Positions 1,190-32,913 of a DNA stretch of 33,173 nucleotides are shown here, piece by piece. The position numbers and the translations under genes are program-made. The notes under the pieces were generated by a model. The model was not told where the DNA came from. It did no database searches and worked only from the letters and a program-made list of their open reading frames with translations. The stretch is taken from the NCBI GenBank assembly GCA_030039035.1, contig JASHQQ010000234.1, positions 1-33,173 on the forward strand, in the 5' to 3' direction. Each line of letters starts with the position of its first letter. The first letter of the stretch is position 1. The stretch comes from Acidobacteriaceae bacterium. Its GTDB lineage: Bacteria > Acidobacteriota > Terriglobia > Terriglobales > Acidobacteriaceae.

Positions 1190-4100
1190 CTATTGCTTGC
1201 CGGCGGGACCGGGGAGCCCGGCCACGGTTTCCAGGCGCTCCGTCTCATAGCCACGCCGCTTGGCGACGACCCGGTAATCGAAGGCGATGCTTGCCCTTCC
1301 TCCGCCGAGTTCGCGGACTTCGAAACCCTTCGCATCGCGACGCGCCACATAGAGTCCGCGGCAATTGCCGAGCGGCGTCAAAAAGACGTGATACCCGATG
1401 CTGCTGTTGACCGTTTCGAGGAAGGCGGCATCAATCGTAACGCGGGCCACGCCATTGTGAAGTTGCGCCGAGCCGAAATCCTCGAACCAGCTCTCCGGCG
1501 ACTCCACGGCATGAACGGCAACCATGCGGCCGTCGGCGGCCGGAACGATGGCATTCTTGTTTCCCGTGACGTCGATTGAGCCGTCAATGGTGAGGGTGTC
1601 TCCGCTCAGGGTGACCGTTCCGCCGGGGGCGCCGGCAAGGGCTCCGGCGGTAGTGAGGACGACACTGCTCGAATTCAGCTTCACGGAAGAGTTGGTTGCG
1701 ATCACGTTGCCGCTGATGGTCGAGTTGGAGAGAGTCAGTGTACCGGAGCCGCCGATGAGGATATCTCCTCCATTGACACTGTTGGCCGGTTGAAGAGCCG
1801 TGGAGAAGTTCAAATCCCCCGTGGCGCCGCCGTTCGCCCCGTTTCCCGTTTCGATGTCGATATTGCCGCCATTGGTGGCGGCGCCTGGTACGTTGTTTCC
1901 GCCTCCTGAGCCCAGATCCAGTTCGCCGCCGTCTCCGTTCGAATCGCCAGAGTCAACCTCAATTGCAGCTCCATCGCCAAGGGCGCCGGTGCTGGTCCCC
2001 GTCGGGCTGTTTCCGCCATTCACGAGTACGGATTGGCCCGTGTTCCCGGTGATCTGCAGACCCTGGTTGCCGCTGATGTTGACCGAGCCACTGCCGCCGG
2101 TCAGGTCCAACGCGCCTCCGGTCGCGCCTTGCAGGTTCACGATGCCGCCGCCTGACCCTCCGGCTCCGCTCGCGCTGATGTTGAGCAAACTCCCGCTTGC
2201 GCCGTTTGCCTGAAGGAGCGTTGTCGCGGCGTTGCCGCCGGCGCCATTGATCTGGACGGCGGGAAGGTTGGAGCCCGCGCCCTGCGTGAGATTCAAATAC
2301 GGCGAACTCACGCCGCCGCTGAATGTGCTGGCAGCGGCGCCGGTTACGCCCAGGGCACCGATCGACGCACTGGTCGCAGTAAAGCCATCGAACGATAGCT
2401 GGCCCGAAAAGGTGTTATTGCCCGTCCAGGCGCCGTTTCCCGCGTATGTGCCAACCACCGCCGGGTCGACCGAGAGGGTGTTGTTGCCGCTGAGTTTGAT
2501 TCCCAGGCCTGCAGCGATGGCCGTGGTGCCGGGAAACGTTTGGCCCGAAGCGAAGGTGATGATGCCGTTGCCGGCGAAGGATAGACCGGTAGGCGAGAAG
2601 GTATTGCCGTTGGAAGAACTCAGGAAGTTCAGTTGCGCGGATGGGGTTGCCGTGTTTGCGCCCGTGGGCGCAGCCTGCAAAGCGAGCGTCGGAGCTTCAG
2701 TGGCCCCGGCATTGTTGGCGACGGATGTCTGAAAACCCAGAGGAGTCGAAGGAAACGACAGCGTAGTGCTTCCACTGCCCGTCGAGCCCAGGAACGTAGT
2801 GCCTCCGTTGCTCGTGCCGAGGAAGATGTTGTCTCCACTGGCCGGGCCGATGAAGATCGTCCCGCTCGCAGTACCGGAACCTCCAATGCTGATTTCGGCC
2901 CGACTCGTATTCGGCGTGCTGCCGCCGGCAGACAAGCTGAGCGCGTTGCCGGTGATCGCGACGGTTCCCTGGGGACTGCTGAAGCTCAGGGCGTTCCCGC
3001 TACCGGTACCGGTAAAAGTCATTCCGTTTGCCGTCGAATTCATGCTGCCATTCTGGAAGGTAACGCCGCCCGTGTTGCCGGAGGAATCGCTGTAGGTCGT
3101 CTGACCCGGGAGGAATGTAGTGCCGGCGGAGGAGGATCCATTGAAGACGCTGATATTCGCAAAGGAGTTGTTGCCGACGAATGTGGTGTTTCCCGAGAAC
3201 GAGGCATTGCCGGCAGAGATGCTCGGCGTGGTGAGGGCGCCGCCGCTGCTGAGAGTGACGTTGCCCTGAAAATCCTGGCTTCCGAAGAAGGTGTTTTTCA
3301 CCGGAGCTCCGGAAGTTCCCAGTAGCGCCAGGTTCCCCGTGGTGAGCGTCGAGCCGTCGGCGAAGCCGATGGAAGGGAGCGGGCCACCTGCCGGTTCCCT
3401 AAGAAGAAGGTTGCGGTAAAGCCATAGCGCGGAGGATCCCCCTCCACCTGCATTGGCGATGCTTTTGCCAGCCGCGGCCGTGCCGCCGAGGCCCAGGACT
3501 TCACCTTTGGCGTCCCGGATCTCAAACGTCGGGTCGACGTCATTCAGGGGATCGATGATCACCCCACCATTGAGGTTGAGCGTGCCATACAGATTTTGCG
3601 TTAGCGGATTTGCCGCCGTGCCGAGCCTTGCGAATTCGTTGGCGGCGAAGCCAGCGCTTTGAAACGAGCCGTCGGGAAAATAGATGCCGTGGCCCGTTCC
3701 GTCAATCTTGACATTGCCGGAGAGATCCAGGGTCTGCGTGGGCTTCGTGGTGCCGATGCCGATGAAGTTGCCGCTCTGGTACAGCAAGGAATTGCCAAGT
3801 GCGGACTGGCTGAAGAACCTGGCCAGATAGCCCGGCGTGCCGGAGCCGGTGATGGAGCTTGACTGCGGCGAAGCTTTGCTCGCCGCGGCCGCATTGGCGG
3901 CGGTCCCGTCGCCAGGCGGTGCGGCGAGAGCATATTCCGAGGCCGGCCTTCCGGCGAGTGTCTGGGCGTCGGCTGCGCGGAGGGCATACGGCACGCTGAC
4001 CAGCAGAACGCGAGGTTGCTCCACGAAGCCGGAACCTTCAATGCCCAGCCAGCGCGGCTCGGACGTGAGAAAAAGCTCCACGGGAACGCCGCCGCTCTTC

Positions 4101-4384
4101 GAGCCGAGGGGAACGGTGAAGCGGCCCTGTTCGTTGGGAGTCACACGTTGAATTTCCGTCCAGAGCGCGCTGCCGCCTTCCGCGTCGCCGTAAATGGCGA
4201 AGATAACCTCGGCGACGGAAGTGACAGGGCGGCCTGCGGAGTCCTTGAGCGTGCCGCTGAAACTGATCCATTCGGGAACTCCGCTCTGGAGCGCGGGAGC
4301 CGATTGAGGGTCAGCGGGCTGCGCGGCCGCGTGAAGAAACGGGAGGATCAGGATGCAGGCCAATACACCGATACGCTTGCTCAT
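1190..4384 (-). CDS. Large secreted surface protein with tail-fibre-like N-terminal region
   Basis: The start at 4384 gives MSKRIGVLACILILPFLHAAAQ, a signal peptide, preceded by an AGGAGA site; the longer frame upstream lacks one. The mature protein (1064 aa with the signal) has four parts. First is an Ig/carboxypeptidase-like domain near residues 35-145 (FSGTLKDSAGRPV to VSVPYALRAADA). Next is a segment resembling tail-fibre and peptidase-S74 protein preambles (NSLLYQSGNFIGIGTTKP, near 200-220). Then come about 650 residues of Gly/Ser/Thr/Asn-rich short repeats likely to form a beta-helix or fibre. Last is a compact C-terminal domain from about 945 (YHVFLTPLGNCRGLYVARRD, then FDYRVVAKRRGYE) that I associate with acidobacterial surface proteins. 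Cysteine is nearly absent. The role is unknown; adhesion or extracellular matrix is a guess. Confidence 0.85.
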   Translation of the reverse strand: MSKRIGVLACILILPFLHAAAQPADPQSAPALQSGVPEWISFSGTLKDSAGRPVTSVAEVIFAIYGDAEGGSALWTEIQRVTPNEQGRFTVPLGSKSGGVPVELFLTSEPRWLGIEGSGFVEQPRVLLVSVPYALRAADAQTLAGRPASEYALAAPPGDGTAANAAAASKASPQSSSITGSGTPGYLARFFSQSALGNSLLYQSGNFIGIGTTKPTQTLDLSGNVKIDGTGHGIYFPDGSFQSAGFAANEFARLGTAANPLTQNLYGTLNLNGGVIIDPLNDVDPTFEIRDAKGEVLGLGGTAAAGKSIANAGGGGSSALWLYRNLLLREPAGGPLPSIGFADGSTLTTGNLALLGTSGAPVKNTFFGSQDFQGNVTLSSGGALTTPSISAGNASFSGNTTFVGNNSFANISVFNGSSSAGTTFLPGQTTYSDSSGNTGGVTFQNGSMNSTANGMTFTGTGSGNALSFSSPQGTVAITGNALSLSAGGSTPNTSRAEISIGGSGTASGTIFIGPASGDNIFLGTSNGGTTFLGSTGSGSTTLSFPSTPLGFQTSVANNAGATEAPTLALQAAPTGANTATPSAQLNFLSSSNGNTFSPTGLSFAGNGIITFASGQTFPGTTAIAAGLGIKLSGNNTLSVDPAVVGTYAGNGAWTGNNTFSGQLSFDGFTATSASIGALGVTGAAASTFSGGVSSPYLNLTQGAGSNLPAVQINGAGGNAATTLLQANGASGSLLNISASGAGGSGGGIVNLQGATGGALDLTGGSGSVNISGNQGLQITGNTGQSVLVNGGNSPTGTSTGALGDGAAIEVDSGDSNGDGGELDLGSGGGNNVPGAATNGGNIDIETGNGANGGATGDLNFSTALQPANSVNGGDILIGGSGTLTLSNSTISGNVIATNSSVKLNSSSVVLTTAGALAGAPGGTVTLSGDTLTIDGSIDVTGNKNAIVPAADGRMVAVHAVESPESWFEDFGSAQLHNGVARVTIDAAFLETVNSSIGYHVFLTPLGNCRGLYVARRDAKGFEVRELGGGRASIAFDYRVVAKRRGYETERLETVAGLPGPAGKQ

Positions 4385-12621: not shown

Positions 12622-13008
12622 ATGCACGAGCTTTCCATTGTCCAGAGCATCGTGGACTCGGTCACGGAGTCGCTGGCTCGCTATCCCGGCGCGTGCGTCG
12701 TCGAGGTGCGGCTGCGCGTGGGCGCGCTGGCCGCCGTCGCCGAGGATTCGCTGCAATTCTGCTACGGGATCGCCATCGAAGGGACCGCGCTCGCCGGCTC
12801 GCGCCTCGCGGTCAGGCATCTGCCCGTCGTGATGCATTGCGCCCGATGCGCGCGGGATGTGACGCTCGAAGGTGTGCAAAGCTTCCGCTGCCCGGACTGC
12901 GGCGAGTTGCTGGGCGAGATGCGCCAGGGGCGCGAGCTGGAGATTGAGTCCATCGGGATCGAAGAAGCGCCGGCCGGAATCCCGGCGGGAATCGGGGACC
13001 AGCCATGA
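12622..13008 (+). CDS. hypA: Hydrogenase maturation nickel metallochaperone HypA
   Basis: HypA delivers nickel to the large subunit of [NiFe] hydrogenases together with HypB. The N-terminus MHELSIVQSIVD contains the nickel-binding His2 and Glu3, and a zinc site is formed by Cys73-x2-Cys76 and Cys90-x2-Cys93. The length, 128 residues, is slightly above the usual 113-118 because of a short glycine/proline-rich tail. The ATG at 12622 is fixed by the requirement that His follows Met. The stop overlaps the hypB start (ATGA), so the two are probably translationally coupled. The ribosome-binding site is weak. Confidence 0.96.
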   Translation: MHELSIVQSIVDSVTESLARYPGACVVEVRLRVGALAAVAEDSLQFCYGIAIEGTALAGSRLAVRHLPVVMHCARCARDVTLEGVQSFRCPDCGELLGEMRQGRELEIESIGIEEAPAGIPAGIGDQP

Positions 13009-13679
13009 CCACGCGCATTGTCGAGCTGCGGCAGGGCATTTTGAAGAAAAACGACGAGCTGGCGCGGGAACTGCGCGAGCGGTTCACCCGCGCCGGCGTG
13101 CTGGTGGTGAATCTCGTCTCCAGCCCCGGAACCGGCAAGACCGCCCTGCTGGAGCGCACACTCCGCGAGTTGCAGTCGCGCGGCCAGCGAGCGGCGGCGC
13201 TGGTCGGCGACCTCGAAACCGACAACGACGCGCGCAGACTGGCGGCCAGCGGCGCGCCGGTGAGGCAGATCAATACGCATGGCATCTGCCATCTCGAAGC
13301 GGAGATGGTGGGCAGGCATCTCGACGGATGGGAGCTGGGCGGCCTCGATTATCTCTTCATTGAAAATGTCGGCAACCTGGTGTGCCCTTCGAGCTACGAC
13401 CTGGGCGAGAAGATTCGCGTGGCGCTGCTGAGCGTCACCGAAGGCGAAGACAAGCCGCTCAAATACCCGACGCTCTTCAATTCCGTCGACGTGGCCGTGA
13501 TCACCAAGACCGACCTGGCCCAGGCGTGCGTGTTTGACCGGTCGGCGGCGCTCAGAAACCTCAACGAGATCCGTCCGGGGATCCGCATCTTCGAAACGTC
13601 GGCGAAGACCGGCGCGGGCATGAGGGACTGGCTGGATTATCTGTGCGCGCAGCGCAGCGTCGCACTTGCGCAGGGATGA
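13005..13679 (+). CDS. hypB: Hydrogenase maturation GTPase HypB
   Basis: HypB is the SIMIBI-class GTPase that drives nickel insertion into [NiFe] hydrogenase. The Walker A motif SSPGTGKT is at 39-46. Further G-domain motifs are GDLETDNDARR, the metal-site pair in THGICHLEAEMV, ENVGNLVCPSSYDLGE and ITKTDLA, the NKxD equivalent. At 224 residues it lacks the N-terminal CxxCGC motif and the histidine-rich nickel store found in some HypB proteins, so it is a minimal form. It overlaps hypA by 4 nt. Downstream there is a hairpin and then a convergent gene, so hypAB appears to be its own transcript here rather than continuous with hypC. Confidence 0.96.
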   Translation: MTTRIVELRQGILKKNDELARELRERFTRAGVLVVNLVSSPGTGKTALLERTLRELQSRGQRAAALVGDLETDNDARRLAASGAPVRQINTHGICHLEAEMVGRHLDGWELGGLDYLFIENVGNLVCPSSYDLGEKIRVALLSVTEGEDKPLKYPTLFNSVDVAVITKTDLAQACVFDRSAALRNLNEIRPGIRIFETSAKTGAGMRDWLDYLCAQRSVALAQG

Positions 13680-13688
13680 GCCCCGCGC

Positions 13689-13723
13689 CACGCGGAAACC
13701 GCTCGCGAGCGGCGTTCCGCGTG
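13689..13723. terminator. Long hairpin between convergent genes hypB and the beta-helix protein
   Basis: CACGCGGAA (13689-13697) pairs with TTCCGCGTG (13715-13723), and the inner CCGCTCG/CGAGCGG is perfect, with a small internal bulge. This is about 16 bp of stem starting 10 nt after the hypB stop and serving either strand. There is no T-run, so termination could need a factor. Confidence 0.55.
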
Positions 13724-13759
13724 ACTCCCGGAGCTTTGGCCGGAAAAGCGCGATTCCAG

Positions 13760-14656
13760 CTACTCAAGAATGGTCGCAAGGGAGAGATGCCCGCTGTGCA
13801 TCTGTCCCGGCACGATGAAGGTCGTCCCGGGGCTCGACCCGGAGAGCTGGCCTCCGACGGCGACGTTCCAGGCCGCAGTGGTGTTGTCGGAGACGAGGCA
13901 ATTGGCGAAGCGCATCTTCCCGGTGGCGCTCACGCCCAGGCCGGTCCCGTTAAAGATGGCGCGGTCGTTATTGAGTGTTACTGTGCCTCCGTCGGCGGCG
14001 AAACCAACGCCATTGAAGTGTGCCGAGGAGTTGTTGAGGGTCAGCTTGCCCACCTCGGAGACTGCGCCAGCGCTGGCGTTCACATCGAACGAACTGCCAT
14101 CCACGTACGCCTCGGCCCCGGTCGCATTGATCAGCAGGCCGTCGTTGGCGTTGCTGTCGGCTTGCAGGTTCGACACATTCATTTCGCCGCCGCTGGCGTC
14201 AAATTCGACACCATTCGAAGTGAAGTCGTCGATCTGCAGGTTGAAGAGGCGCAGCACCCCGACCTGGGTCACCATGACTCCATCTGTTCCCTTGCCATGG
14301 CCGCGTAAAGCGAAACCGTTGAGCGTTACATTTCCCGTGGCGCTGATGGTTACGGCGTTTCCCGCGGCCGTCGTGCTGATCCAGGCGTCCACGCCGACTG
14401 CCTCGATGGTGACCGCCTGCGAGATGGTTGCCGGATCATAGGCGCCGGAAGTCTGGAGAATGATCGTTCCCCCCGGACTGGTCACGGCAAGCGCATGGTC
14501 GATGGTGAGGCAGGGCAGCTTTTCCGTGCAGGGGTTGGTGTCGTTCCCGGTGGTTGAGACATAGCTGACTTCGTTCAGCGCCCACGCGGCGGTTGTGAAA
14601 GCCAGCGCCATTGCGGCGCACACGATCTGCTTGATCATCGGGCGATGCATTTGCAT
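13760..14656 (-). CDS. Secreted right-handed beta-helix protein
   Basis: The ATG at 14656 has AAGGAGG upstream and yields a signal peptide (MIKQIVCAAMALAFTTAAWA after six leading residues), for 298 residues in all. The mature start YVSTTGNDTNPCTEKLPCLT is the usual opening of pectin-lyase-like parallel beta-helix proteins with two cysteines. Coils follow as repeated hydrophobic/Asn ladders (AVTISATGNVTLNGFALRGH, GGEMNVSNLQADSNANDGLL, GGTVTLNNDRAIFNGTGLGV). No catalytic residues of a known polysaccharide lyase stand out, so binding, adhesion or a degenerate enzyme are all possible. It lies antisense between hypB and hypC, an odd place for a surface protein. It probably has its own promoter in the 480-nt region upstream. 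Confidence 0.85.
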   Translation of the reverse strand: MQMHRPMIKQIVCAAMALAFTTAAWALNEVSYVSTTGNDTNPCTEKLPCLTIDHALAVTSPGGTIILQTSGAYDPATISQAVTIEAVGVDAWISTTAAGNAVTISATGNVTLNGFALRGHGKGTDGVMVTQVGVLRLFNLQIDDFTSNGVEFDASGGEMNVSNLQADSNANDGLLINATGAEAYVDGSSFDVNASAGAVSEVGKLTLNNSSAHFNGVGFAADGGTVTLNNDRAIFNGTGLGVSATGKMRFANCLVSDNTTAAWNVAVGGQLSGSSPGTTFIVPGQMHSGHLSLATILE

Positions 14657-15138
14657 GGTATCGGGTCCTCCTTGGGTTCCTGTTGGAATGGACAGTCGTG
14701 GGCCGGGGTGGCCATCGCCAGGAAGGCATTCCCCGGGAGTGTGACAGAGGGAGACGAATCGCCTCAGGGGAGCTGAAACATTCTGCGGGCGTGAGGGGAG
14801 GAGTCTCCGGTGGATTCGGGAGTCTGGAAAATGCCGAGGGTCAACGCTAGCATGCCGAAGGGAAGACCGGCAATGACGTCGAGCCCCGGTGCACGCTACC
14901 GGCAACAACCCGGTCCGCCTGAAAATGTCGCGGCCGGCGCACGTGCGCACCTGCTGAAGGTACCCCCCTTTGAACCGACATGTCTGGCCCGGGCGGCGTG
15001 AGGCCGGAGAGGAAACCGTCGCGCCGAAGTCACCTTCACCGGACCCGAACGGGTGATATCGGGGCAGCGGCCTTTGCGATATAAAGGAACGAAATATAGA
15101 GCGCGGTTTTTCCCCCAAGGGACAGGGCCCGGCATAAG
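14657..15138. other. Gene-free spacer between divergent genes (482 nt)
   Basis: This region separates the beta-helix gene (minus) from the tail-anchored protein gene (plus). I find no convincing reading frame. An A/T-richer stretch at 15075-15110 (GATATAAAGG and GAAATATAGA) is the likeliest place for a promoter reading towards 15139, but no clear -35 accompanies it. I see no strong hairpin. Confidence 0.4.
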
Positions 15139-15579
15139 ATGACACCCGTGCATCCCGCAGACAGGATCCGTGAAGCCAAGATGTTTCTGGCCAGCCGCAT
15201 CGCCGACGAGGCAGATCGCGAAGGCATTCCCCTCACGGAGATCGAGCGCAAGATGCTCTACGATTCCGAATCCGGCTGGAAGCTGCCGGAAATGGCCGAA
15301 GTCAAGGCTGCTTTCGACCGCGACTACGACCGTGGCCTGTTCGAGGCGCGGACGAAGCGCCTCATTCGCCGCGCGCGGTCGCGCCTGATGGATGGAGACA
15401 AAGCGGAGTATGTGAGATGGAAATGGGCCATCCGGGAGTTGCGCGGCCAGGACCACTATGTGCTGACGCTCATCGCCGCGGCGCCGCCCACGGGCGAGAT
15501 CACCCGGCTGGTGATCACGGCGCTGGTGATCATTGGCGTGATCCTCGTGGCGCTGTTTCTGGTGAGCCGGGGATATTGA
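15139..15579 (+). CDS. Hypothetical protein with C-terminal membrane anchor (146 aa)
   Basis: I do not recognise a named family. Residues 1-110 are polar, highly charged and predicted helical (DRIREAKMFLASRIADEADR, ERKMLYDSESGWKLPEMAEV, RLIRRARSRLMDGDKAEYVR). One hydrophobic helix follows near 122-143 (ITRLVITALVIIGVILVALF), and the protein ends LVSRGY. This predicts a tail-anchored inner-membrane protein with a cytoplasmic domain. The start ATG at 15139 has no good Shine-Dalgarno. It lies upstream of hypC on the same strand with 110 nt between, so co-transcription with hypCDE is possible, but nothing in it suggests hydrogenase assembly. Confidence 0.8.
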   Translation: MTPVHPADRIREAKMFLASRIADEADREGIPLTEIERKMLYDSESGWKLPEMAEVKAAFDRDYDRGLFEARTKRLIRRARSRLMDGDKAEYVRWKWAIRELRGQDHYVLTLIAAAPPTGEITRLVITALVIIGVILVALFLVSRGY

Positions 15580-15689
15580 GCAGCGCGCCGGGGCCGGAAA
15601 GCCGCCGGCCCGAAATGAGACCTGCGAATCTCCGGCCGGTGACATAAATCACTCCCGCCCTGACCCGCCCGGCGTATAAAAGGACTGTT

Positions 15690-16004
15690 ATGTGTCTGGC
15701 GATCCCGGGCAAGGTCGAAGCCATTTCCACCGACGGCGCGATCCGGATGGGTCGCGTGAACTTCGGCGGCGTGGTCAAATCGGTGTGTCTGGAGTACGTG
15801 CCGGAGATCGAGGTCGGCGATTACACTATCGTGCACGTGGGCTTTGCCATCGCCAGAATCGACGAAGAGAGCGCGCAGAAGACGCTGGAGGACTTCCGCC
15901 AGTTGGGCGTGCTCGACGAAGAGCTGGCCGGCGAAGAGGAAGCGTTTCGAAGAGCCGCCTCGGCGCCGCAATCGAGCTGCCCGGATGGTAGTTGCCCGCG
16001 CTGA
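15690..16004 (+). CDS. hypC: Hydrogenase maturation chaperone HypC
   Basis: HypC is the small chaperone that works with HypD to carry the Fe(CN)2CO unit and then binds the hydrogenase large subunit precursor. The N-terminus MCLAIPGKV has the essential Cys2. The conserved [11 protein letters not shown] segment (His49) and the acidic helix [15 protein letters not shown] follow. At 104 residues it is longer than the usual 75-95 because of an acidic and Ser/Cys-containing tail ([10 protein letters not shown]) that is not typical. AAGGA precedes the ATG by about 6 nt. hypD and hypE follow on the same strand. Confidence 0.96.
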
Positions 16005-16090
16005 TCGGCTGCCTGGCCAACCCGCTGACTTGCTTGCCCGCTAACCCGGCCAAGATCGCCTGCACCGCTCGTTTGGAGCCTCACCGACGC

Positions 16091-17224
16091 ATGAAATACC
16101 TCACCGAATTCCGCAACGGCGAGATCGCCCGGGCGCAGGCGCGCGAAATCCACGCCATGACCACGCGGCCGTGGAAGATCATGGAAGTCTGCGGCGGCCA
16201 GACCCACTCCATCATCAGGAACGGCATCGACCAGATGCTGCCCGCCGGCATCGGGATGGTTCACGGCCCCGGCTGCCCGGTCTGCGTCACCCCGCTCGAG
16301 CTCATCGACAAGGCGCTGGCCATCGCCGCGCAGCCCGGGGTGATTTTCTGCTCCTTCGGCGATATGCTGCGCGTTCCCGGCACCGAAGGCGACCTCTTTC
16401 AGGTCAAGGGCCGCGGCGGCGACGTGCGCGTGGTCTATTCGCCGCTTGACGCGCTGGAATTGGCCGTGCGCAATCCGGACAAGCAGGTGATCTTCTTCGG
16501 CGTGGGATTTGAGACGACTGCGCCGGCCAACGCCATGAGCGTTCACCAGGCCAGGCGGCGCGGCATCGGCAACTTTTCGCTGCTCGTCTCGCATGTGCTG
16601 GTTCCGCCGGCGATCGAGGCTATCATGAGCTCGCCCGGCAATGAAGTTCAGGCGTTTCTGGCCGCCGGCCACGTGTGCAGCGTGATGGGCTATTGGCAGT
16701 ATCCTCCGCTGGCCGGGAAATACGGGATTCCGATCGTCGTCACCGGTTTTGAACCGCTCGATCTTCTCGACGGCATTCACCGCGCCGTGCGCCAGCTCGA
16801 AACTGGCCGGCACGAGGTGGAGAATGCCTACGACCGCGTTGTCACATATCGCGGAAACGAGGCGGCGCAGCGCCTGCTTGCCGAGGTCTTCGAGGTCACC
16901 GACCGCGCCTGGCGCGGCATCGGCGTGATTCCGAAGAGCGGCTGGCGGCTGAATGCCGACTATCGCGACTTCGACGCTGAAGATCGCTTCCAGATCGCCG
17001 GCATTCACACGCAAGAGTCGCCGCTGTGCCGCTCCGGCGACGTGCTGCGCGGCGCCATCAAGCCGGCCCAGTGTCCCGCTTTCGGCAAGGAGTGCTCGCC
17101 ACGGCATCCGCTGGGCGCAACCATGGTTTCGAGCGAGGGCGCCTGCGCGGCGTACTACAACTACGGGCGGTTTTTGCCGGCGGAGGAGCTGGCGAGTGCG
17201 GGAAAGGCTATGTCGGCGTTTTAG
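16091..17224 (+). CDS. hypD: Hydrogenase maturation iron-sulfur protein HypD
   Basis: HypD is the [4Fe-4S] scaffold on which the Fe(CN)2CO group of [NiFe] hydrogenase is assembled, with HypC and cyanide from HypE/HypF. Diagnostic motifs are all present: [10 protein letters not shown] with Cys34, [10 protein letters not shown] with Cys62 and Cys65, GVGFETTAP, and a C-terminal cysteine cluster ([39 protein letters not shown]). The start ATG at 16091 ([13 protein letters not shown]) is the family's usual start; the frame is open 99 nt further upstream but that extension is not conserved-looking. The length of 377 aa is normal. It follows hypC after 86 nt and is separated from hypE by a spacer with short repeats. 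Confidence 0.97.
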
Positions 17225-17230
17225 CTGTCG

Positions 17231-17307
17231 GCTCTCGGCTATCAGCTTTCAGCGTGCAGTTGAGTCGGCAAGCGGCTGATAGCTGATAGCTGACGGCTGA
17301 AAGCTCA
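17231..17307. repeat. Short-unit repeat between hypD and hypE
   Basis: The spacer is built from variations of AGCTGATAGC and CTGAAAGCT and their reverse complements (GGCTATCAGCTTTCAGC near 17238, AGCTGATAGC at 17281, CTGAAAGCT near 17298). Several small hairpins can form. No coding potential is seen. Confidence 0.55.
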
Positions 17308-17320
17308 CCACGAGATCGCA

Positions 17321-18418
17321 ATGAGCGAGACGATGCAAGCCAAGCTCGAAGAACCGCGAACCACCACCCCCGACTTCTCCGGCTGGTCCTGCCCGCTGCC
17401 GCTGGCCGACTATCCCGCCATCGTGATGGGCCATGGAGGCGGCGGCAAGCTGGGCAGCGAACTCGTCGAGCACCTGTTTCTGCCTGCGTTCCGCAATCCC
17501 GCCCTCGAAAGCCTCGGCGATGGCGCAGTGCTCGATCTGGCGAACGGCCGAATCGCCATGAGCAGCGATTCCTTCGTCGTGCGGCCGCTCTTCTTTCCCG
17601 GCGGTTCCATCGGCGCCCTTGCAGTAAATGGCACAGTCAACGATCTCGCCGTCTCCGGCGCTGAGCCGAGGTATTTGAGCGCGAGCTTCATCCTCGAAGA
17701 AGGCCTTCCGCTGGCGCAGCTCGCCGCCATCGTCGAAGAGATGTCCCGCTCGGCGCGCGATGCCGGCGTCGAGATCGTCACCGGCGACACCAAGGTGGTC
17801 GAGCGCGGCCACGGCGACGGATGCTACATCAACACCACGGGAATCGGCATGCGGCGCGAAGGAATCGCCGTTGGCCCGCAACGCGCGCAGGCGGGCGACG
17901 CGATTCTCGTTTCCGGCACAATCGGCGACCACGGCATGGCCATCATGAGCGTGCGCGAGGGGCTCGAATTCGAAAGTCCCATCCGTTCCGATTGCGCCCC
18001 GCTCAACGGCATGATCGCCGAAGTGCTCGCCGCCGCCGGCGCGGCGGTGCACGCCATGCGCGACCCCACGCGCGGCGGGCTCGCCTCGACGCTGAATGAG
18101 ATTGCGCAGGCTTCGCGCGTTGGCATCGCCATCGACGAGACGAAGATTCCCGTGCGGCTCGAAGTGCAGTCGGCGTGCGAACTGCTGGGCCTCGATCCGG
18201 TCTACGTGGCCAATGAAGGCAAAGCCGTGTTCTTTGTCGCACCGGATGCCGCGGATCGCGTACTTGCGGTGCTGCGCGCGCATCCGCTGGGGCGCGACGC
18301 GGCGCGCATTGGCCACGTATGTGCCGAACACAAGGGAATGCTGGTGGCGCGCACCGCCATGGGCGCCAATCGCGTGATCCCGATGCAGATTGGCGAGCAG
18401 TTGCCGAGAATCTGCTAA
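17321..18418 (+). CDS. hypE: Hydrogenase maturation protein HypE
   Basis: HypE dehydrates the thiocarbamoyl group on its own C-terminal cysteine to thiocyanate, supplying the cyanide ligands of the [NiFe] site. The protein ends in PRIC, the essential tetrapeptide with Cys365. It also has the PurM/AIR-synthase-like ATP site: GHGGGGKLGSELVEHL (37-52), DSFVVRPLFFPGG, TGDTKVVERG, and MRDPTRGGLASTLNEIA. It is full length at 365 residues with a short extra N-terminal segment. A GAAAGCT stretch lies upstream, but no strong Shine-Dalgarno. hypF, which carbamoylates HypE, is not in the window. Confidence 0.97.
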   Translation: MSETMQAKLEEPRTTTPDFSGWSCPLPLADYPAIVMGHGGGGKLGSELVEHLFLPAFRNPALESLGDGAVLDLANGRIAMSSDSFVVRPLFFPGGSIGALAVNGTVNDLAVSGAEPRYLSASFILEEGLPLAQLAAIVEEMSRSARDAGVEIVTGDTKVVERGHGDGCYINTTGIGMRREGIAVGPQRAQAGDAILVSGTIGDHGMAIMSVREGLEFESPIRSDCAPLNGMIAEVLAAAGAAVHAMRDPTRGGLASTLNEIAQASRVGIAIDETKIPVRLEVQSACELLGLDPVYVANEGKAVFFVAPDAADRVLAVLRAHPLGRDAARIGHVCAEHKGMLVARTAMGANRVIPMQIGEQLPRIC

Positions 18419-26081: not shown

Positions 26082-28271
26082 CTAGTAATTCCGCAGGTCC
26101 ACGACAGCCTTGAGGATCGTTTCCGGCTGCGGCAGAATGGCGTCCTCGAGGACGGGCTGGTAGGCGACAAAGGTATCCAGCGCAGCCACGCGGCGAACCG
26201 GGGCATCGAGATCGTCGAAGAGCTCGTCGGCGATGCGCGCGGCGATCTCGGCGCCGTAGCCCCAACTCAGCATGTCCTCATAGGCCACAATCACGCGGCT
26301 GGTTTTGCGGATGGATTCGGCGATCGCCTCCCAGTCGTAGGGACTTAGCGTGCGCAGGTCGAGCACTTCGACATCGATGCCGTGCTGGCGGTGAGCCTTT
26401 TGCGCCGCCTGCAGCGCACGCGGCACCAGAGCGCCATAGGTCACCAGCGTGATTTGCGAGCCGGGCCGGACGATCTTCGCCTTGCCGAAGGGAATGGCGA
26501 AATCGGGACCGGGATACGAGGCGCGGCCATAGGTTTCGCGGTAAAGCCGCTTGTGCTCCAGGAACAGGACCGGGTCGTCGCAGCGGATGGCCGTGCGCAG
26601 CAGGCCGTTGGCGTCGAGTGCGTTGGACGGAAACGCGACGCGCAGGCCGGGAATGTGCGTGAAGATGGATTCGCCCGATTGCGAGTGATAAATGGCGCCG
26701 CCGGTGAGATAGCCTCCGATGGCCACGCGCAACACCGCGGGCGCGGTCCACGCGCCATTCGAGCGCCAGCGCATCAGCGCCAGCTCGTTGCGAATCTGGT
26801 GCATGGCCGGCCAGATGTAGTCGAAGAACTGGATCTCGACGATCGGCTTCATGCCGCGCAATGCGTAGCCCACGGCGCGGCCCACGATGTTGGCTTCGGC
26901 CAGCGGGGAATTGAAGACCCGCTCCGAGCCGAATTCGGCTTGCAAACCCACGGTGAGCTTGAAGACGCCGCCCTTGCCTTTCACCTCGCCCAGCGCCTGC
27001 TCGCGGCTGGCGTCGGCCACGTCTTCGCCATAGACCACGATGCGCGGGTCGCGGCGCATCTCGTCGGCGAGGCAGGCGTTGATCAGGTCGGCCATGGTGC
27101 GCGGCGCGGCTGTTTTGCCGCCGTTGGAGCCGTCTGGCGACTGCGCCTGCCCGGTGGCAAAGGCGGCTTTCCCCGGGTCCAGATCGTGCGAACAGACATG
27201 TTCGGTGACGCTGGAAATCGCGGGCAGCGGCGCGGCCAGCGCGTGCTCGGCAGCTTCGGCGGCCTCCTCGTCCAGCGACTTTTCGAGGCGATTGATCTCT
27301 TCGGCGCCGAGAATGCCCTCGCGCAGCAGCCGCATTTGCAGCCGCGTAATGGGGTCGCGCAGTGCATCGGCTTGGCGCTCGGCCGCCGAACGATAGAGCT
27401 TGTCGTCGTCGGAAAGCGAATGCGAATAGGGCCGGATGCAGTGCCCGTGCACGAAAGCAGGACCCAGCCCGGCGCGGCAGTGCGCCGCAGCCGCCTGGAA
27501 AGCAGCCAACGACACTTCGGGATCGGTGCCGTCAATCTCGGCAAAGTGAAAGTTGGGAAAGTTGGCCACCAGTCGTGAGATATTCCCGCCCGGCGTATTC
27601 ACCTCGACGGGAACGCTGATCGCGTACCCGTTGTCTTCGACCAGAAAGATGACGGGAAGCCTGCGGTTCGAGGCGGTGCCGATCGCTTCCCAGAATTCGC
27701 CTTCGGAAGTGGAGCCCTCGCCGAGCGAGGCCAACACGACTTCGTCGCCGTGGAACTCGACCTCGTGGAACTGGCGGTAGTCGCCGGCGGCCTTTTCGGC
27801 GGCCTCGGGATGCCGGCTGAAGTATCTGCCGGCCTCCGCGCAACCCACGGCGTGCAGCAGTTGCGTCGTGGTGGAGGAGGACGTGCTCACAATGTGCAGC
27901 GCGCGGCTGCTCCAGTGCGAAGGCATCTGCCGGCCGCCGCTGGCCTGGTCGGTGGCGGCGCCGACCGCCTGCAAAATCATGTCGGTGGGCGTGACACCGA
28001 GAGCCAGGCAAAGCGCGCGATCGCGATAATAGGGAAAAAACCAGTCGTACCCGGGACGCAGAGCCAGCGCCGCGCCCACCTGAAGAGCCTCATGCCCGGC
28101 GCCGGAGACCTGGAAGTAGATCTTTTGCTGGCGCTTGAGGAGAATCTCGCGGTCGTCCACGCGGCGGGAAAGATACATGAGCCGGTAGATTTCGATCAGC
28201 TTCTGAGGACTCAGCCCCCCGGAAGCGGCAATCGTTCCGGGCTGGCGAGCGCTGGAAATTGCCAATTCCAT
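26082..28271 (-). CDS. Fused E1 alpha-beta 2-oxoacid (2-oxoisovalerate-type) dehydrogenase
   Basis: This thiamine-diphosphate enzyme carries out oxidative decarboxylation of a 2-oxoacid and passes the acyl group to lipoyl-E2. The alpha part (about 1-340) has [29 protein letters not shown], and the TPP motif [20 protein letters not shown] (184-203) ending at Asn214. The phosphorylation-loop-like [14 protein letters not shown] is near 281-294. After a low-complexity linker (about 360-390) the beta part begins [20 protein letters not shown] and contains [25 protein letters not shown] and [20 protein letters not shown]. It totals 729 residues. The branched-chain type is favoured over pyruvate or acetoin by overall resemblance. 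The ATG at 28271 is about 10 nt from GGGGAG; an ATG at 28280 is also possible. No E2 or E3 gene is in the window. Confidence 0.92.
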
Positions 28272-28510: not shown

Positions 28511-28975
28511 TCACTTTATCTGAAAAGGCGACTGCGGCACCGGCGGGGGTTGCGGTTGCGTCACCGGGGGACCACCGGCCGAATAGCTCATCTTGTCCTT
28601 TACATTGTGCGCCAGTTTTTCGATCTCGGCCAGTTTGCGCATCTGCGCAGGCGTCAGGGAGACGGGATTCTGGACTCCGATCTCCGCATCCAGCTCGGTC
28701 GCCAGCTTCAGCAGCTTGTTGGTGTCGGAAACCATCGATTTCTGGCGCTCGCGGTTGAGCGCGCGCAGGCGCTCCTGTTGCTCGACATAATCGCCGTTGC
28801 CCGTATCGTCGAGCATGCCTCCCACCCGCTGTCCTATCGGCTGCTGGAGCGGCCCCCTCGGTTGCGGAATGTTCTGGGCCCCGCCGGGCAGCGCCAGCAC
28901 CGCGGCCAGCCATAGCACCAGCCGGGCGGCGTGGGGATGGGTACGGCAAAGCGAATTCAACCGCAACGCTTGCAT
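28511..28975 (-). CDS. Exported helical-module protein, family member 1 (divergent)
   Basis: This is one of six adjacent paralogs in which I recognise no named family. An N-terminal export signal (hydrophobic stretch RLVLWLAAVLALPGGAQ, about 18-34) precedes a proline/glycine-rich segment. The shared helical module spans about 72-132: LNRERQKSMVSDTNKLLKLA, ELDAEIG, then EIEKLAHNVKDKM. It differs from members 3-6 by replacing the KDTLSL turn with a SLTPAQMRKL stretch. It also carries a proline/glutamine-rich C-terminal tail (PPVTQPQPPPVPQSPFQIK). The mature protein lacks cysteine and is probably periplasmic. It is the last gene of the array, 162 nt after member 2. The ribosome-binding site is weak compared with members 3-6. 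Confidence 0.85.
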   Translation of the reverse strand: MQALRLNSLCRTHPHAARLVLWLAAVLALPGGAQNIPQPRGPLQQPIGQRVGGMLDDTGNGDYVEQQERLRALNRERQKSMVSDTNKLLKLATELDAEIGVQNPVSLTPAQMRKLAEIEKLAHNVKDKMSYSAGGPPVTQPQPPPVPQSPFQIK

Positions 28976-29137
28976 GACGGCTTCATCTTACCGCATTCCC
29001 GACTCCGGAGCGCACCGGCATCGGGCATCGTGATTCATGCGCCAAAGCGCGGGCACGGCCCGGAAGTCCAGGAATCTTCGAAGGGATTGGACCGAAAACT
29101 GCGCCAGCATGGCTACCTTCGGGCGCCGCGGAAACAC

Positions 29138-29614
29138 TTACTCCGGCATCGGCGCCAGTTTCATGTTTTCCTTCACGTTATTGGCCAGCTTCCGGATCTC
29201 GTCGACCATGCGCGGCTCGTCCGCCGAGGGAGCGGCGCGGCCTGTGTCGCCCAGTTCCGCGCGCAGCTCACCGGTAAGCTCCAGCAGCCTCTGTACGTCG
29301 GAAACCATCGATCTTTGCCGGTCGGAACTGAAGCGCCGCCAGAGTTTCTCCCGCTCCTGAGGGGTGAGACTCGCGTTCGATTCCGCCTGCGCCAACCCGA
29401 TCTGGCCGGTCGGTTCAAGCAGGATCCCGGGGCCCGGGTTTACCGAAACGATGGCGGCGCGATCGGCTGCGGGCAATTGCGCTCGCGCCACGGCGGAAAG
29501 TCCCGGCAACAGCAGGGCCATCGCAATCCGGCTCAAAACGCGGCAGCCTGCCGCAAAACGTTCGGGATGCGGCGAGTGAATTTCCGCGGCCGCCAATGGA
29601 TTGGAATTCAGCAC
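29138..29614 (-). CDS. Exported helical-module protein, family member 2 (divergent)
   Basis: Its hydrophobic signal region is RIAMALLLPGLSAVARAQ. The mature part has a linker (SVNPGPGILLEPTGQIGLAQ) and the family module FSSDRQRSMVSDVQRLLELT, ELRAELGDTG, then DEIRKLANNVKENMKL. A SLTPQEREKLWRRF stretch just before the module resembles the Hsp20/Spy-like 'LTPEQ' type helix start, but is too short to assign. I chose a GTG at 29614 because it follows the stop of member 3 by 17 nt, has GAGG upstream and gives the long N-region seen in the other members; an ATG at 29521 would begin at the hydrophobic core. With the GTG start it is 158 residues. It is probably co-transcribed with member 3. Confidence 0.75.
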   Translation of the reverse strand: MLNSNPLAAAEIHSPHPERFAAGCRVLSRIAMALLLPGLSAVARAQLPAADRAAIVSVNPGPGILLEPTGQIGLAQAESNASLTPQEREKLWRRFSSDRQRSMVSDVQRLLELTGELRAELGDTGRAAPSADEPRMVDEIRKLANNVKENMKLAPMPE

Positions 29615-29631
29615 CAGATCGTTCGCCTCTT

Positions 29632-30090
29632 CTAGTTTGCCCCGGCAATCAGCTTCATCTTCTCCTTCACCCCGTGGGCCAGTCTCTCGATCTCCTCCGC
29701 TTTGCGAATCACGCCCAGGGAAAGCGTGTCCTTGCTCGTCTTCTCGACTTCTGCCTTCAGATCGGCGGCCAGTTTCAGCAGTTTGGCGCTGTCGTCGGCG
29801 ATCTGCTTCCTGCGTTCGGTATTGGCCGCCGCAAAGTCCTTGTCGCTTGCCAGATGTTCCCGTTCCTCCATCTGCGCATTGGCGTCGGGCGGCTGGTTGA
29901 TGGCCGTGGGCAGGCTGGCCTTGTCGGTTCGCACCGTGCCTCCGGGCGGTGGTGCGATCTGGGCTCTCCCGGCGACTGCCGCGATCAGGACAACCGTTAC
30001 GGTCACGACCGGGAGCGCGATGGAATGGAATCGGGGCAGGCGTGCGCCGGTCAAGCCACCCGGGGTACATGGGTTCGTCCGAAAGTGCAT
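29632..30090 (-). CDS. Exported helical-module protein, family member 3
   Basis: 152 residues. MHFRTNPC opens a basic N-region followed by the hydrophobic signal core (SIALPVVTVTVVLIAAVAGRAQ, ending about 44). A spacer contains PPDANAQM, the recurrent family motif before the module. The module (about 89-146) reads ANTERRKQIADDSAKLLKLA, DLKAEVEKTSKDTLSLGVIR, then EEIERLAHGVKEKMKL. The amphipathic spacing predicts two helices joined at the KDTLSL turn. The ATG at 30090 has GGAGG followed by TTCCC, a leader also found in member 6 and nearly so in member 5. No cysteine remains after signal removal. Function is unknown; a periplasmic or outer-membrane-associated helical protein is the most that can be said. 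Confidence 0.88.
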   Translation of the reverse strand: MHFRTNPCTPGGLTGARLPRFHSIALPVVTVTVVLIAAVAGRAQIAPPPGGTVRTDKASLPTAINQPPDANAQMEEREHLASDKDFAAANTERRKQIADDSAKLLKLAADLKAEVEKTSKDTLSLGVIRKAEEIERLAHGVKEKMKLIAGAN

Positions 30091-30236
30091 GGGAACCTCC
30101 AGGGCGATCATGGTCGGGAATGCCGGACTTCCCGCTCTTCCCGGAGACTTCGACAGCCTGCCGGAATGAACGGATCGCGCACCGGCACGGCGCCGCTCCT
30201 ATGGCGCGCCGGCGCGCCGGCGAAAACCGGGCGTAA

Positions 30237-30704
30237 TTAACTGGCTCCCGCGCTGAGTTTCATCTTTTCCTTTACGCTGTGCGCCAGCCTCTCGATCTCG
30301 TCGGCCTTGCGGATGACGTCGAGCGAAAGAGTATCCTTGCTGGTCTTGTTCACTGCAGCATTCAGATCGCCGGCCAGCTTGAGAAGCTCCGCGGTGTCGT
30401 CGACAATCTGCTTTTTGCGTTCCGTATTGGCCGCCGTATAGTCCTTGGCCTTCTGATCCTTCTGCTGCTCGTTCATCACCATCTGGTCGTTGGCATCCGG
30501 CAGATGGTTGGCCTCCGGCAGCAGAATCGGATGCGGAGGGCGAGCCGGCGGCTCCTGCGGGTTCTGGCCGGCGGACCGCAATGCCCCCGCCAGCGCCAGC
30601 GCCGCCGTGCAGACCGCGATTCGCGTCGTCAGGCGAATCGCAAGCCGGTGGGGTAAAACGCCGCGGCGGCTGTTTTCGGGGCGGGGGAGCCGAGCAAATC
30701 GCAT
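30237..30704 (-). CDS. Exported helical-module protein, family member 4
   Basis: 155 residues. A long basic N-region (MRFARLPRPENSRRGVLPHR) precedes the signal core IAVCTAALALAGALRSAGQ. The linker is proline-rich and contains LLPEANHLPDANDQMVMNEQ, very like member 6. The module (about 91-150) reads AANTERKKQIVDDTAELLKL, DLNAAVNKTSKDTLSLDVIR, then ADEIERLAHSVKEKMKL. At DNA level the last part of this gene is almost the same as member 6 (for example GATGACGTCGAG and the bases around it), so the two are recent duplicates. The ATG at 30704 has GGAGG 5 nt upstream. It lies 76 nt from member 5 and 146 nt from member 3. Confidence 0.9.
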   Translation of the reverse strand: MRFARLPRPENSRRGVLPHRLAIRLTTRIAVCTAALALAGALRSAGQNPQEPPARPPHPILLPEANHLPDANDQMVMNEQQKDQKAKDYTAANTERKKQIVDDTAELLKLAGDLNAAVNKTSKDTLSLDVIRKADEIERLAHSVKEKMKLSAGAS

Positions 30705-30780
30705 GCTATCCTCCAGCACAAACGAATTACCTCGCGACCACTATAGAACCTGGCGACGATTCCGTCGCGCGGATTCCGAT

Positions 30781-31218
30781 CTAACCTCCGATCGTCAGTT
30801 TCATATGCGCCTTTACATCCCTGGCCAGCTTTTCAATCTGTTCCGCCTTGCGAATCACTCCCACAGACAAGGTATCCTTGTCGGTCTTGTCCATCTCGTT
30901 CTTCAACTGCGCGGCGAGTTCCAGCAGTTCCGCGCTCTCGTCGGTGAGCAGCTTGCGCCGCGCCGCGTTGGCGTTCTCGAAGTTCTGGTCCTGTTCCTGC
31001 TGCTGTTGCATCAGCATCTGATCGTTGGCATCGGGAATCCGGTTGGCGTCGGGGGAAAGATGCAACCGGATGGAATTGCGCTGCAGCGCCGGTGCTCCGG
31101 ATTGGGCCTGGGCGCCCACCGCAAAAATCGCAACCAGGACGGCGATCGCCCAGCCCGAGTGAAAGCCGGATGAGCCGATGAATCGGCGATCGCCTTCAGG
31201 ACACTTGCGGAAATGCAT
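30781..31218 (-). CDS. Exported helical-module protein, family member 5
   Basis: 145 residues. MHFRKCPEGDRRFIGSS is the N-region, WAIAVLVAIFAVGAQAQ the signal core with an AQA cleavage-like end near 39. The linker has SPDANRIPDANDQMLM followed by a glutamine run (QQQQEQDQ). The module (about 83-141) reads NANAARRKLLTDESAELLEL, QLKNEMDKTDKDTLSVGVIR, then EQIEKLARDVKAHMKL. It is the most diverged of members 3-6. The ATG at 31218 has a strong AAGGAGG followed by TTCTTCC. It follows member 6 after 106 nt. Confidence 0.88.
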   Translation of the reverse strand: MHFRKCPEGDRRFIGSSGFHSGWAIAVLVAIFAVGAQAQSGAPALQRNSIRLHLSPDANRIPDANDQMLMQQQQEQDQNFENANAARRKLLTDESAELLELAAQLKNEMDKTDKDTLSVGVIRKAEQIEKLARDVKAHMKLTIGG

Positions 31219-31324
31219 GGAAGAACCTCCTTGCTACGGGGTTCGATGCAGGTCCTTCCATTTGCGTTCAGCACTGCGGCACATTTTGCCCGTCGTTGTC
31301 AAGGGCTTTTTTCAGACGGGCTGC

Positions 31325-31786
31325 TCAGCTCCCTCCGGCTTCGAGTCTCATCTTCTCTTTCACGCTGTGCGCCAGCCTCTCGATCTCATCGGCCTTGCGG
31401 ATGACGTCGAGGGAAAGTGTATCCTTGGTCGTCTTGTCCACCGCTGTCTTCAGCTCTGCCGCCAGCTTGAGGAGTTTGGCGGAATCGTCGGCAATCTGCT
31501 TCTTGCGCTCCTGGTTGGCCGTGGCGTAATCCGCAGGTTTCGCCTGTTGTTGTTCCTTCATCTCCATCTGCTGGTTGACGTCGGGCAGACGGTTTGCCTC
31601 GGGCAGCAGGTACGGTTTGTCGGTATTGGGCGCAGGCGTCTGCTGGCCCGAAAACGACGCGCCCGTCAACGCGGCCACCGCGGCGATGCAGGCGAGGCTG
31701 CGCACCCATTCAAATGCGGCGGGGAACCCGCGGGAGCTTTCCCGGCGGCCGGCGACCGGGAGTTCCTGGCGTGGGGTAAATGGCAT
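31325..31786 (-). CDS. Exported helical-module protein, family member 6
   Basis: 153 residues and the first gene of the array. The N-region (MPFTPRQELPVAGRRESSRG) and signal core (SLACIAAVAALTGASFSGQ) are followed by a linker with LLPEANRLPDVNQQMEMKEQ. The module (about 89-148) reads TANQERKKQIADDSAKLLKL, ELKTAVDKTTKDTLSLDVIR, then ADEIERLAHSVKEKMRL. The ATG at 31786 follows AGGAGG and TTCCC. It is divergent from the MscS channel gene at 31903, with 116 nt between; the promoter of the whole array probably lies there. The function is unknown. Proximity to a mechanosensitive channel hints at an envelope-stress role, but that is only inference. Confidence 0.9.
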   Translation of the reverse strand: MPFTPRQELPVAGRRESSRGFPAAFEWVRSLACIAAVAALTGASFSGQQTPAPNTDKPYLLPEANRLPDVNQQMEMKEQQQAKPADYATANQERKKQIADDSAKLLKLAAELKTAVDKTTKDTLSLDVIRKADEIERLAHSVKEKMRLEAGGS

Positions 31787-31902
31787 GGGAACCTCCTGTT
31801 CCGTCATGCACATGTTTTGCGGTCTGCGCGCACAGGAATTGGCAAGGCGCGACCTCGGAAGGGCTTCCTGCGCCTAGTCTAGTCTACAAACAGGAGATTT
31901 GG

Positions 31903-32913
31903 ATGCATCCTTTTTTGCTGGCGGCGCGCCTGGGCTGGTTCGCCGAAGGACGCTTTCTGGGCAGGATCCTCGACGAGTGGATCAACGACGCGCAGGAATT
32001 CATCCGCACCAAGCTGCCCCACCTCGTTGTCGTCGCGATTATCGCTTTTGTTCTCAATTATTTGGTCAAATCGATTACCGACCGCATGATCCGCATTGCC
32101 GAGCGGCACGCCGCCGGCCGCAGCCGCATTTCGCAGGTGAAAACCCTGGCCGGCGTCATCCACACCACCGGGATCGCGATCATCGGCGCCATCGTTACAT
32201 TGCAGGTGTTGGCCGCCGTGGGCGTCAACCTTGCGCCGCTGCTGGCTTCGGCGGGCGTGGCGGGGGTGGCCATCGGCCTGGCGGCGCAGAACATTGTCAA
32301 GGACATGCTGAACGGCGTCCTCATTCTCATCGAAGATCAGTTCGACGTCGGCGACACGGTCAAGCTGGCCGGCCTGGCCGGCGTAGTGGAAGGCATGACG
32401 CTGCGCAAGACGCTGGTGCGCGACGGCGACGGGACGCTGTACGTGATCCCCAATTCGCAGATCACCACGGTGGCCAATCAGAGTGTTGGCTATTCGGTGG
32501 CGACCGTCAACGTCAGCGTGGACTTCTCCGCGAATCCCGATGAAGTGGTCGATCTGTTGAAAACCATCGCGATGGAGATCCGGAGCAGCGCCGAATTCGC
32601 CAGGGTATTTGTCGCGGACCCGCAGGTATTGGGCGTCGACGCGGTGAAAGGATCGGAACTGGTCTTCCCGGTCGTCTTCAAAACCCTGGCCACGCAGCAA
32701 TACGGTCCGGTGCGGGAGTTCCGCCGCAGGGTCCGCCTGGCGCTCGAAGAACATCACATGCTGCCTGGCGATCCCAACCGCGTCTTCAAGGCCTTCGGCG
32801 CAAGCGAAAGCGACGAGGTCCAAGTGACCAAGCGGCCGACCGAAGAGCACGCGGCCGCTCCGGACCCGACCACGATCAAGCCGCAGGAGACGAATCCGTT
32901 TTCCGGCGAATGA
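31903..32913 (+). CDS. MscS-family small-conductance mechanosensitive channel
   Basis: MscS channels open under membrane tension to release solutes on osmotic downshock. This 336-residue protein has three spans, about 38-58, 83-107 and the pore-lining 111-143. The pore helix has the alternating Gly/Ala packing pattern LLASAGVAGVAIGLAAQN, then IVKDMLNGVLILIEDQFDVGD. The beta domain (LAGVVEGMTLRKTLVRDGDG, YVIPNSQI) and the alpha/beta C-terminal domain follow. A charged, proline-rich tail of about 50 residues ends the protein. The ATG at 31903 follows CAGGAG by 6 nt. It diverges from the six-gene exported family. The gene name is left open because several MscS paralogs are usual in one genome. 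Confidence 0.94.
   Translation: MHPFLLAARLGWFAEGRFLGRILDEWINDAQEFIRTKLPHLVVVAIIAFVLNYLVKSITDRMIRIAERHAAGRSRISQVKTLAGVIHTTGIAIIGAIVTLQVLAAVGVNLAPLLASAGVAGVAIGLAAQNIVKDMLNGVLILIEDQFDVGDTVKLAGLAGVVEGMTLRKTLVRDGDGTLYVIPNSQITTVANQSVGYSVATVNVSVDFSANPDEVVDLLKTIAMEIRSSAEFARVFVADPQVLGVDAVKGSELVFPVVFKTLATQQYGPVREFRRRVRLALEEHHMLPGDPNRVFKAFGASESDEVQVTKRPTEEHAAAPDPTTIKPQETNPFSGE

What the first reader, a model, noticed from the sequence alone, without database searches (positions are those of the whole stretch)
28511..31786. Six adjacent exported proteins sharing an undescribed helical module, divergent from an MscS channel
Six consecutive minus-strand genes each encode a signal peptide, a Pro/Gln-rich linker and one module of about 60 residues. 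The module pattern is xxR[KQR]xxxx[DS][DET]xxxLLxLxxxL, a turn, then [ED]xIxKLAxxVKxxM. Members 3-6 also share PDAN/PDVN-x-QM before the module, a KDTLSL turn, and strong GGAGG start signals. No cysteine, enzyme motif or lipobox is seen. The tandem expansion implies selection for dosage or variety. I know of no described function; a periplasmic helical-hairpin protein linked to envelope stress is one hypothesis, suggested only by the divergent MscS gene.
Basis: partly seen in the sequence, partly recalled or inferred. Interest (0 to 1): 0.72.

Follow-up and report, generated by a model that had tools for sequence, protein, structure and literature searches.

The report
Undescribed exported helical-hairpin proteins beside MscS
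Six neighbouring genes of a soil Acidobacteria-type bacterium encode small exported two-helix proteins of a family that the databases searched do not describe; most sampled genomes of its class carry it, and in two families of that class it usually sits back-to-back with a pressure-release (MscS) channel gene, so it is a promising but functionally unproven part of the cell envelope.

Summary
In detail: six minus-strand genes (m1-m6, 28511-31786) each encode a hydrophobic export-type signal, a linker and one ~60-residue module. The module has no consistent Pfam, NCBIfam or PDB match and is modelled as a confident helical hairpin. It is no local oddity: 133 of 151 sampled genomes of the class have it, and two-module relatives outside the class lie before VWFA genes. 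The divergent MscS is not incidental: strong MscS hits have a module gene adjacent and divergent in 29 of 31 cases in the window's family and 22 of 30 in a second family, but 0 of 37 in seven others; six genomes have MscS and no recognisable module gene. A tree splits the arrays into two old types: A (m1-m4, expanded) and B (m5, m6; the last member of all 25 arrays), and type A copies are under purifying selection. Best explanation: a periplasmic hairpin that oligomerises and binds an envelope component through a conserved basic helix carrying IEKLA, made alongside MscS. The role is inferred, not shown. A Spy/ZraP relationship was tested and not supported.

The parts
31325..31786 (-). m1, type A member (MscS-proximal), signal + linker + helical module
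   Evidence: GGAGG start signal
30781..31218 (-). m2, type A member
30237..30704 (-). m3, type A member, module 80% identical to that of m1 (start taken at the ATG behind GGAGG; the gene caller took the GTG at 30719)
29632..30090 (-). m4, type A member; folded by AlphaFold2 as a hairpin (helices 70-117, 125-151)
29138..29614 (-). m5, divergent type B member, GTG start, no GGAGG
   Evidence: (long branch)
28511..28975 (-). m6, type B member (last, next to the E1 gene)
31787..31902 (.). divergent intergenic region shared by m1 and MscS
31875..31886 (+). TAGTCTAGTCTA element just upstream of the MscS ribosome-binding site, conserved in loci of similar arrangement, one exact copy in this genome
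31903..32913 (+). MscS-type mechanosensitive channel gene
   Evidence: Pfam PF00924 E 1e-17; start
26082..28271 (-). fused E1 dehydrogenase (E1_dh + transketolase domains), the gene after the array in the genus
   Evidence: Pfam scan was of the L016 relative, not of the window copy

Best explanation
The six genes belong to an undescribed family of export-type helical-hairpin proteins found in most sampled genomes of this class of Acidobacteriota. SHOWN by sequence: hydrophobic export-type N-terminus, a linker, one hairpin module (model) with a strongly conserved I-E-[KR]-L-A-x-x-[VI]-[KR] second helix, two old paralogue types (A and B), purifying selection on the A copies, and a divergent MscS gene conserved across two families. 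INFERRED: after export the hairpins pair into bundles (A with A or A with B) in the periplasm and use the conserved basic face of the second helix (positions 129, 130, 136, 139, 142 around E135, m4 numbering) to bind an anionic envelope component or an envelope partner protein. They are made alongside MscS, so that an envelope-supporting protein and a pressure-release channel are produced together when turgor changes. Extra type A copies raise dosage. I give about 0.9 to the family statement and about 0.4 to this role.
For: Family and spread. No known family. Hairpin: (71 of 152 residues at pLDDT >=90; helices 70-117 and 125-151); a natural two-module protein, P0048, models as the hairpin twice. 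Conservation over 216 module rows, weighted: E135 95%, L137 95%, A138 95%, I134 92%. MscS adjacent and divergent: 29 of 31 in f1 and 22 of 30 in f7, plus one further f7 case. Within five genes of MscS the module gene is the only cluster frequent in both families, 18 of 20 f1 and 19 of 20 f7 loci (the f7 loci were chosen for having the pair). A and B types: all 25 last members plus m5 on one side of a starred branch. Constraint among m1-m4: dN 0.10-0.36 against dS 0.69-1.79.
Against: No experiment. MscS without an adjacent module gene is common: 0 of 37 strong MscS hits in seven other families, and six f7 genomes have MscS and no recognisable module gene. The module gene lives in many other contexts: H+-pyrophosphatase, VWFA, Ddl, homoserine dehydrogenase, and (by eye) carA-like and trpB-like genes. 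The model gives no oligomer (monomer only, pTM 0.51). Export rests on hydropathy and by-eye cleavage sites; no signal-peptide predictor was at hand. Joint production with MscS rests on gene layout alone.
Confidence: 0.4

Rival explanations
1. Direct partner: the hairpin proteins are periplasmic gating modulators or auxiliary subunits of the adjacent MscS channel.
For: Pair conserved in two families while the other frequent neighbours change; short intergenic region (116 bp in the window).
Against: Six f7 genomes keep MscS with no recognisable module gene; in most lineages examined the module gene is away from MscS; the window MscS is short (336 aa) with no periplasmic domain in the Pfam scan.
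Confidence: 0.18
2. Bystander synteny: the module protein is a general envelope protein (perhaps a partner of VWFA-type proteins) and has simply stayed beside MscS by inheritance.
For: Single genes in many unrelated contexts; same-strand position before VWFA-like genes in 7 of 7 fetched loci outside the class (7 of 11 matching genomes fetched), gaps 2-374 bp; MscS kept where the module gene is missing.
Against: Between f1 and f7 the other frequent neighbours of MscS differ (E1 16 of 20 against 0; DUF4760-type 0 against 18 of 20) while the divergent pair stays.
Confidence: 0.22
3. Periplasmic ATP-independent chaperone or metal sensor that works like Spy, CpxP or ZraP.
For: Small, export-type, helical hairpin; LTxxQ-like start of the first helix in some f5 members (L102, L109, by eye); one of 34 members hits Metal_resist at E 0.00099, below its cut-off.
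Against: Profile comparison with 17 Metal_resist proteins of relatives: probability 0.6%, about that of six controls at 0.1-0.5%; true Metal_resist proteins exist separately in 26 of 31 genomes searched.
Confidence: 0.15
4. The ORFs are not real genes, or the similarity is only generic coiled-coil composition.
For: Helical stretches attract weak matches to unrelated helical families.
Against: Strong position-specific conservation, purifying selection, many relatives, start signals.
Confidence: 0.02

Closest known systems
Metal_resist / LTXXQ group (PF13801: Spy, CpxP, ZraP-like; names recalled)
   Same: Small exported helical proteins with helix hairpins; some members here share an LTxxQ-like start
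   Different: No significant profile similarity (probability 0.6%); no consistent LTxxQ motif in the alignment; separate true PF13801 proteins exist in the genomes
Skp and FadA (fold resemblance only)
   Same: Long antiparallel helices
acidobact_VWFA (TIGR03436) gene neighbourhoods
   Same: Two-module relatives lie before such genes outside the class
   Different: No VWFA-like ORF immediately next to the module genes in the loci of the window's class that were scanned; the nearest found are about 2-3 kb off. The VWA protein itself is a different family
MscS auxiliary proteins
   Same: Gene beside an MscS channel
   Different: No described exported MscS partner of this type came up in four searches (listings and abstract starts only)

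Membership tests
Any Pfam-A family | Score above the curated cut-off | tested here: not met
   0 of 6 window members; over 34 members no family is matched by more than two, best E 0.00018 (GspL_C, one member)
Any NCBIfam family | Score above the curated cut-off | tested here: not met
   0 of 6 window members; none for the one two-module relative scanned, L192
Metal_resist (Spy/CpxP/ZraP-like) | Profile similarity to the family | tested here: not met
   hhalign of 216 module rows (100 after its own filter) against 17 PF13801 proteins: probability 0.6%; six controls 0.1-0.5%
Metal_resist (Spy/CpxP/ZraP-like) | Same fold | tested here: inconclusive
Metal_resist (Spy/CpxP/ZraP-like) | Chaperone or metal-binding activity | not testable with these tools
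   needs purified protein
This new hairpin family | Export-type signal + linker + one hairpin module with I-E-[KR]-L-A-x-x-[VI]-[KR] | tested here: met
   m5 departs (IRKLA in place of IEKLA)
MscS partner protein | Physical or functional interaction with MscS | not testable with these tools
   only gene adjacency was tested
MscS channel (the neighbour gene) | MS_channel_2nd domain | tested here: met
   PF00924 E 1e-17, 64.4 bits over a cut-off of 20.2

The most novel reading that the evidence does not exclude
A class-wide, previously undescribed two-type (A/B) periplasmic hairpin system acts as an adjustable accessory of an MscS channel: A and B hairpins co-assemble near the channel or the wall and tune its opening or protect the envelope during release, with A copy number setting the dose; two-module versions do a related job with VWA-domain proteins outside the class.
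Probability: 0.15. Interest if true: 0.75.

Novelty: new variant of a known kind. Interest (0 to 1): 0.5.

Why it matters
A protein family found in 133 of 151 sampled genomes of a class of soil bacteria (62 of 67 genera) that matches no Pfam or NCBIfam family in the scans made here is a sizeable gap in annotation. The conserved pairing with MscS in two families, the A/B split and the genomes that have MscS without the module gene give a concrete, testable entry to how these bacteria handle osmotic shock.

Tried and rejected

Spy/ZraP relationship: raised by LTxxQ-like starts and one weak Metal_resist hit; tested by profile comparison and not supported. Of 25 PF13801 loci, 23 gave a translated frame, some of them antisense frames; the 17 with an LTxxQ-like motif were used.

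Regulon by the TAGTCTAGTCTA element: with exact YAGTCTAGTCTA, one copy in the window genome, one each in two of six relatives, none in four; the reversed control pattern occurs once in G001 and twice in G002. So it is a local element, not a regulon. My notebook says 22 intergenic regions; the recount is 21.

Two-module structure: the model shows the hairpin twice, pTM 0.38, so packing between modules is undecided.

Literature: eight full-text searches; I saw listings and the starts of abstracts only and read no paper. None of the listed titles describes this family.

Limits of the counts. The one search list is cut at about E 5e-12, so adjacency is a lower bound (one more f7 case, G151). Of the MscS hits I kept those down to about E 1.5e-53 and dropped the weaker ones (two f1 genomes, G086 and G143, among them), but added one weaker partial hit, G128, that lies beside a module gene; without it f7 is 21 of 29. 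The 20 f7 loci were all chosen for having the pair; the 20 f1 loci are 20 of the 31 f1 hits and include G167, the one without a module gene. In some searches my gene caller missed the module gene in L154 and L176, where one search places one; of 29 loci with MscS, array and E1, three were dropped as the same contigs as others and one (L030) as a likely near-copy of L024; the rows of genomes without a match are only partly listed. VWFA: of seven neighbours four were scanned with NCBIfam and all four confirmed; the other three rest on similarity to them and were in the training set of the model. Genes other than those scanned were called by a simple script of mine.
Full report
WHAT IS THERE. Six minus-strand ORFs lie at 28511-31786 between a divergent MscS gene (31903-32913, +) and a fused E1 dehydrogenase gene (26082-28271, -). 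I number them m1 (next to MscS) to m6. Each has a net basic N-terminus, a hydrophobic stretch (best 15-residue hydropathy 1.7-2.7), a variable linker and one module of about 60 residues. A protein search of the window's genome finds six copies and they are these six (5.9 Mb in 404 contigs, about 86% complete, so others may be missing).

HOW WIDE. Query m4 alone has 1322 relatives; a 34-row profile has 4761 among the 8000 candidates scored, a capped number. By profile the module is in 27 of 41 relatives (narrow six-row profile) and in 133 of 151 genomes of the class, 62 of 67 genera. The 32 named loci of one scan all bear Acidobacteriota titles: Terracidiphilus, Granulicella, Sulfotelmatobacter, Solibacter, Bryobacter and unnamed MAGs. 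In a phylum sample 28 of 149 genomes match: 17 of the window's family and 11 outside the class, the latter more weakly, best E 7e-12. Seven of those 11 were fetched: each relative carries two module matches in one protein, one of the two weak in some, and lies on the same strand before a VWFA-like gene in all seven, with gaps of 2-374 bp; NCBIfam TIGR03436 confirms the four VWFA proteins that were scanned. A profile comparison between the module rows and these proteins gives probability 97.4%, against 0.1-0.5% for six controls; the set was found with the module profile, so this is support and not an independent discovery.

MSCS LINK. Among 98 MscS hits taken, a module gene lies within 2 kb and divergent in 29 of 31 in family f1 and 22 of 30 in f7, with one further f1 case adjacent in another arrangement; in f3, f4, f5, f6, f8, f9 and f14 it is 0 of 37 (what was kept and dropped is told in Tried and rejected). 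One more f7 case, G151, was found later. Within five genes of MscS, in 20 f1 and 20 f7 loci, the module gene is the only cluster frequent in both families (18 and 19). The next best are clusters at 3 and 10, and at 9 and 3; the E1 gene is 16 and 0, and the DUF4760-type gene behind MscS 0 and 18. So other frequent neighbours have changed while the divergent pair stayed; the f7 loci were chosen for having the pair, so the unbiased rate there is the one. Against a strict partnership: six f7 genomes have MscS and no module match better than E 0.07. In two of them (G136, G120) the gene across the gap looks, by eye, like the one that follows the module gene in G151, as if the module gene alone had been lost.

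OTHER CONTEXTS. In f5 the gene sits tail-to-tail with an H+-pyrophosphatase gene in 8 of 10 loci, and the same neighbour recurs in seven loci and in one f12 locus; the pyrophosphatase was named by Pfam on one member of the cluster. Elsewhere neighbours include Ddl, homoserine dehydrogenase and glucuronate isomerase. The protein therefore has a job that does not always need MscS nearby.

TWO TYPES. A tree of 70 module regions from 25 arrays puts all 25 last members plus window m5 on one side of a fully supported branch, and all 44 other first and middle members on the other (98 columns, quick method, 36 of 67 inner branches unresolved). Array sizes are 2 (13 arrays), 3 (7), 4 (3), 5 (1) and 6 (1, the window). 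The window thus holds four A and two B copies; m5 is a long branch whose place is less sure. Module dN/dS among m1-m4 is well under 1 (dN 0.10-0.36, dS 0.69-1.79), so these copies are kept as proteins; m5 and m6 were not tested.

CONSERVED FACE. Over 216 module rows the most conserved positions (m4 numbering) are A138, E135, L137, I134, L104, L111, L107, L123 and S124, and the second helix carries mostly basic residues at 129, 130, 136, 139, 142, 144 and 146. A polar residue as constant as E135 (95%) suggests binding or a fixed packing contact; this is inference.

MECHANISM. Shown: export-type sequence, hairpin model, old A/B split, constraint on A copies, divergent MscS conserved in two families. 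Inferred: export itself, periplasmic bundle formation, binding of an anionic envelope component or partner through the second helix, joint production with MscS. I give about 0.4 to this role and list rivals. A Spy/ZraP-like action is possible, but membership in that family was tested and not met.

CIS ELEMENT. Between m1 and MscS lies TAGTCTAGTCTA (31875-31886), just upstream of the MscS ribosome-binding site (by eye). Within two mismatches it occurs in 21 of 75 MscS-module intergenic regions; its exact 8-mers occur in up to 20 regions against 0.2-0.6 in base-shuffled sequence. One exact copy exists in the window genome, so it is a local element, perhaps the MscS promoter or an operator.

VERDICT. 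A real, widespread, export-type protein family with no description found here and a conserved but not obligatory link to an MscS gene. Function open. Interest 0.5.

Noticed in passing
window 31875-31886: TAGTCTAGTCTA element upstream of MscS, within two mismatches in 21 of 75 intergenic regions, one exact copy in the window genome.
   Followed up: partly
   Followed up: partly
L100, L101, L103-L107, L109, L115, L011, L012, L026, L033, L036, L085, L086: Recurrent neighbourhood of the module gene with an H+-pyrophosphatase gene.
   Followed up: partly
L140-L159 (family f7): A DUF4760-type gene lies near MscS, as a rule behind it on the same strand, in 18 of 20 f7 loci; Pfam scan of one (L142).
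   Followed up: no
window 12622-18418: Plus-strand genes that look like hydrogenase maturation genes (HypA, B, C, D, E; by eye, names recalled), with a minus-strand ORF among them.
   Followed up: no
window 1190-4384: A long Gly/Ser/Thr-rich minus-strand protein of 1064 residues with an export-type start and repeat-like composition, by eye.
   Followed up: no
P0048: A protein of 234 aa with two modules that resemble type A by eye, modelled as the hairpin twice.
   Followed up: partly
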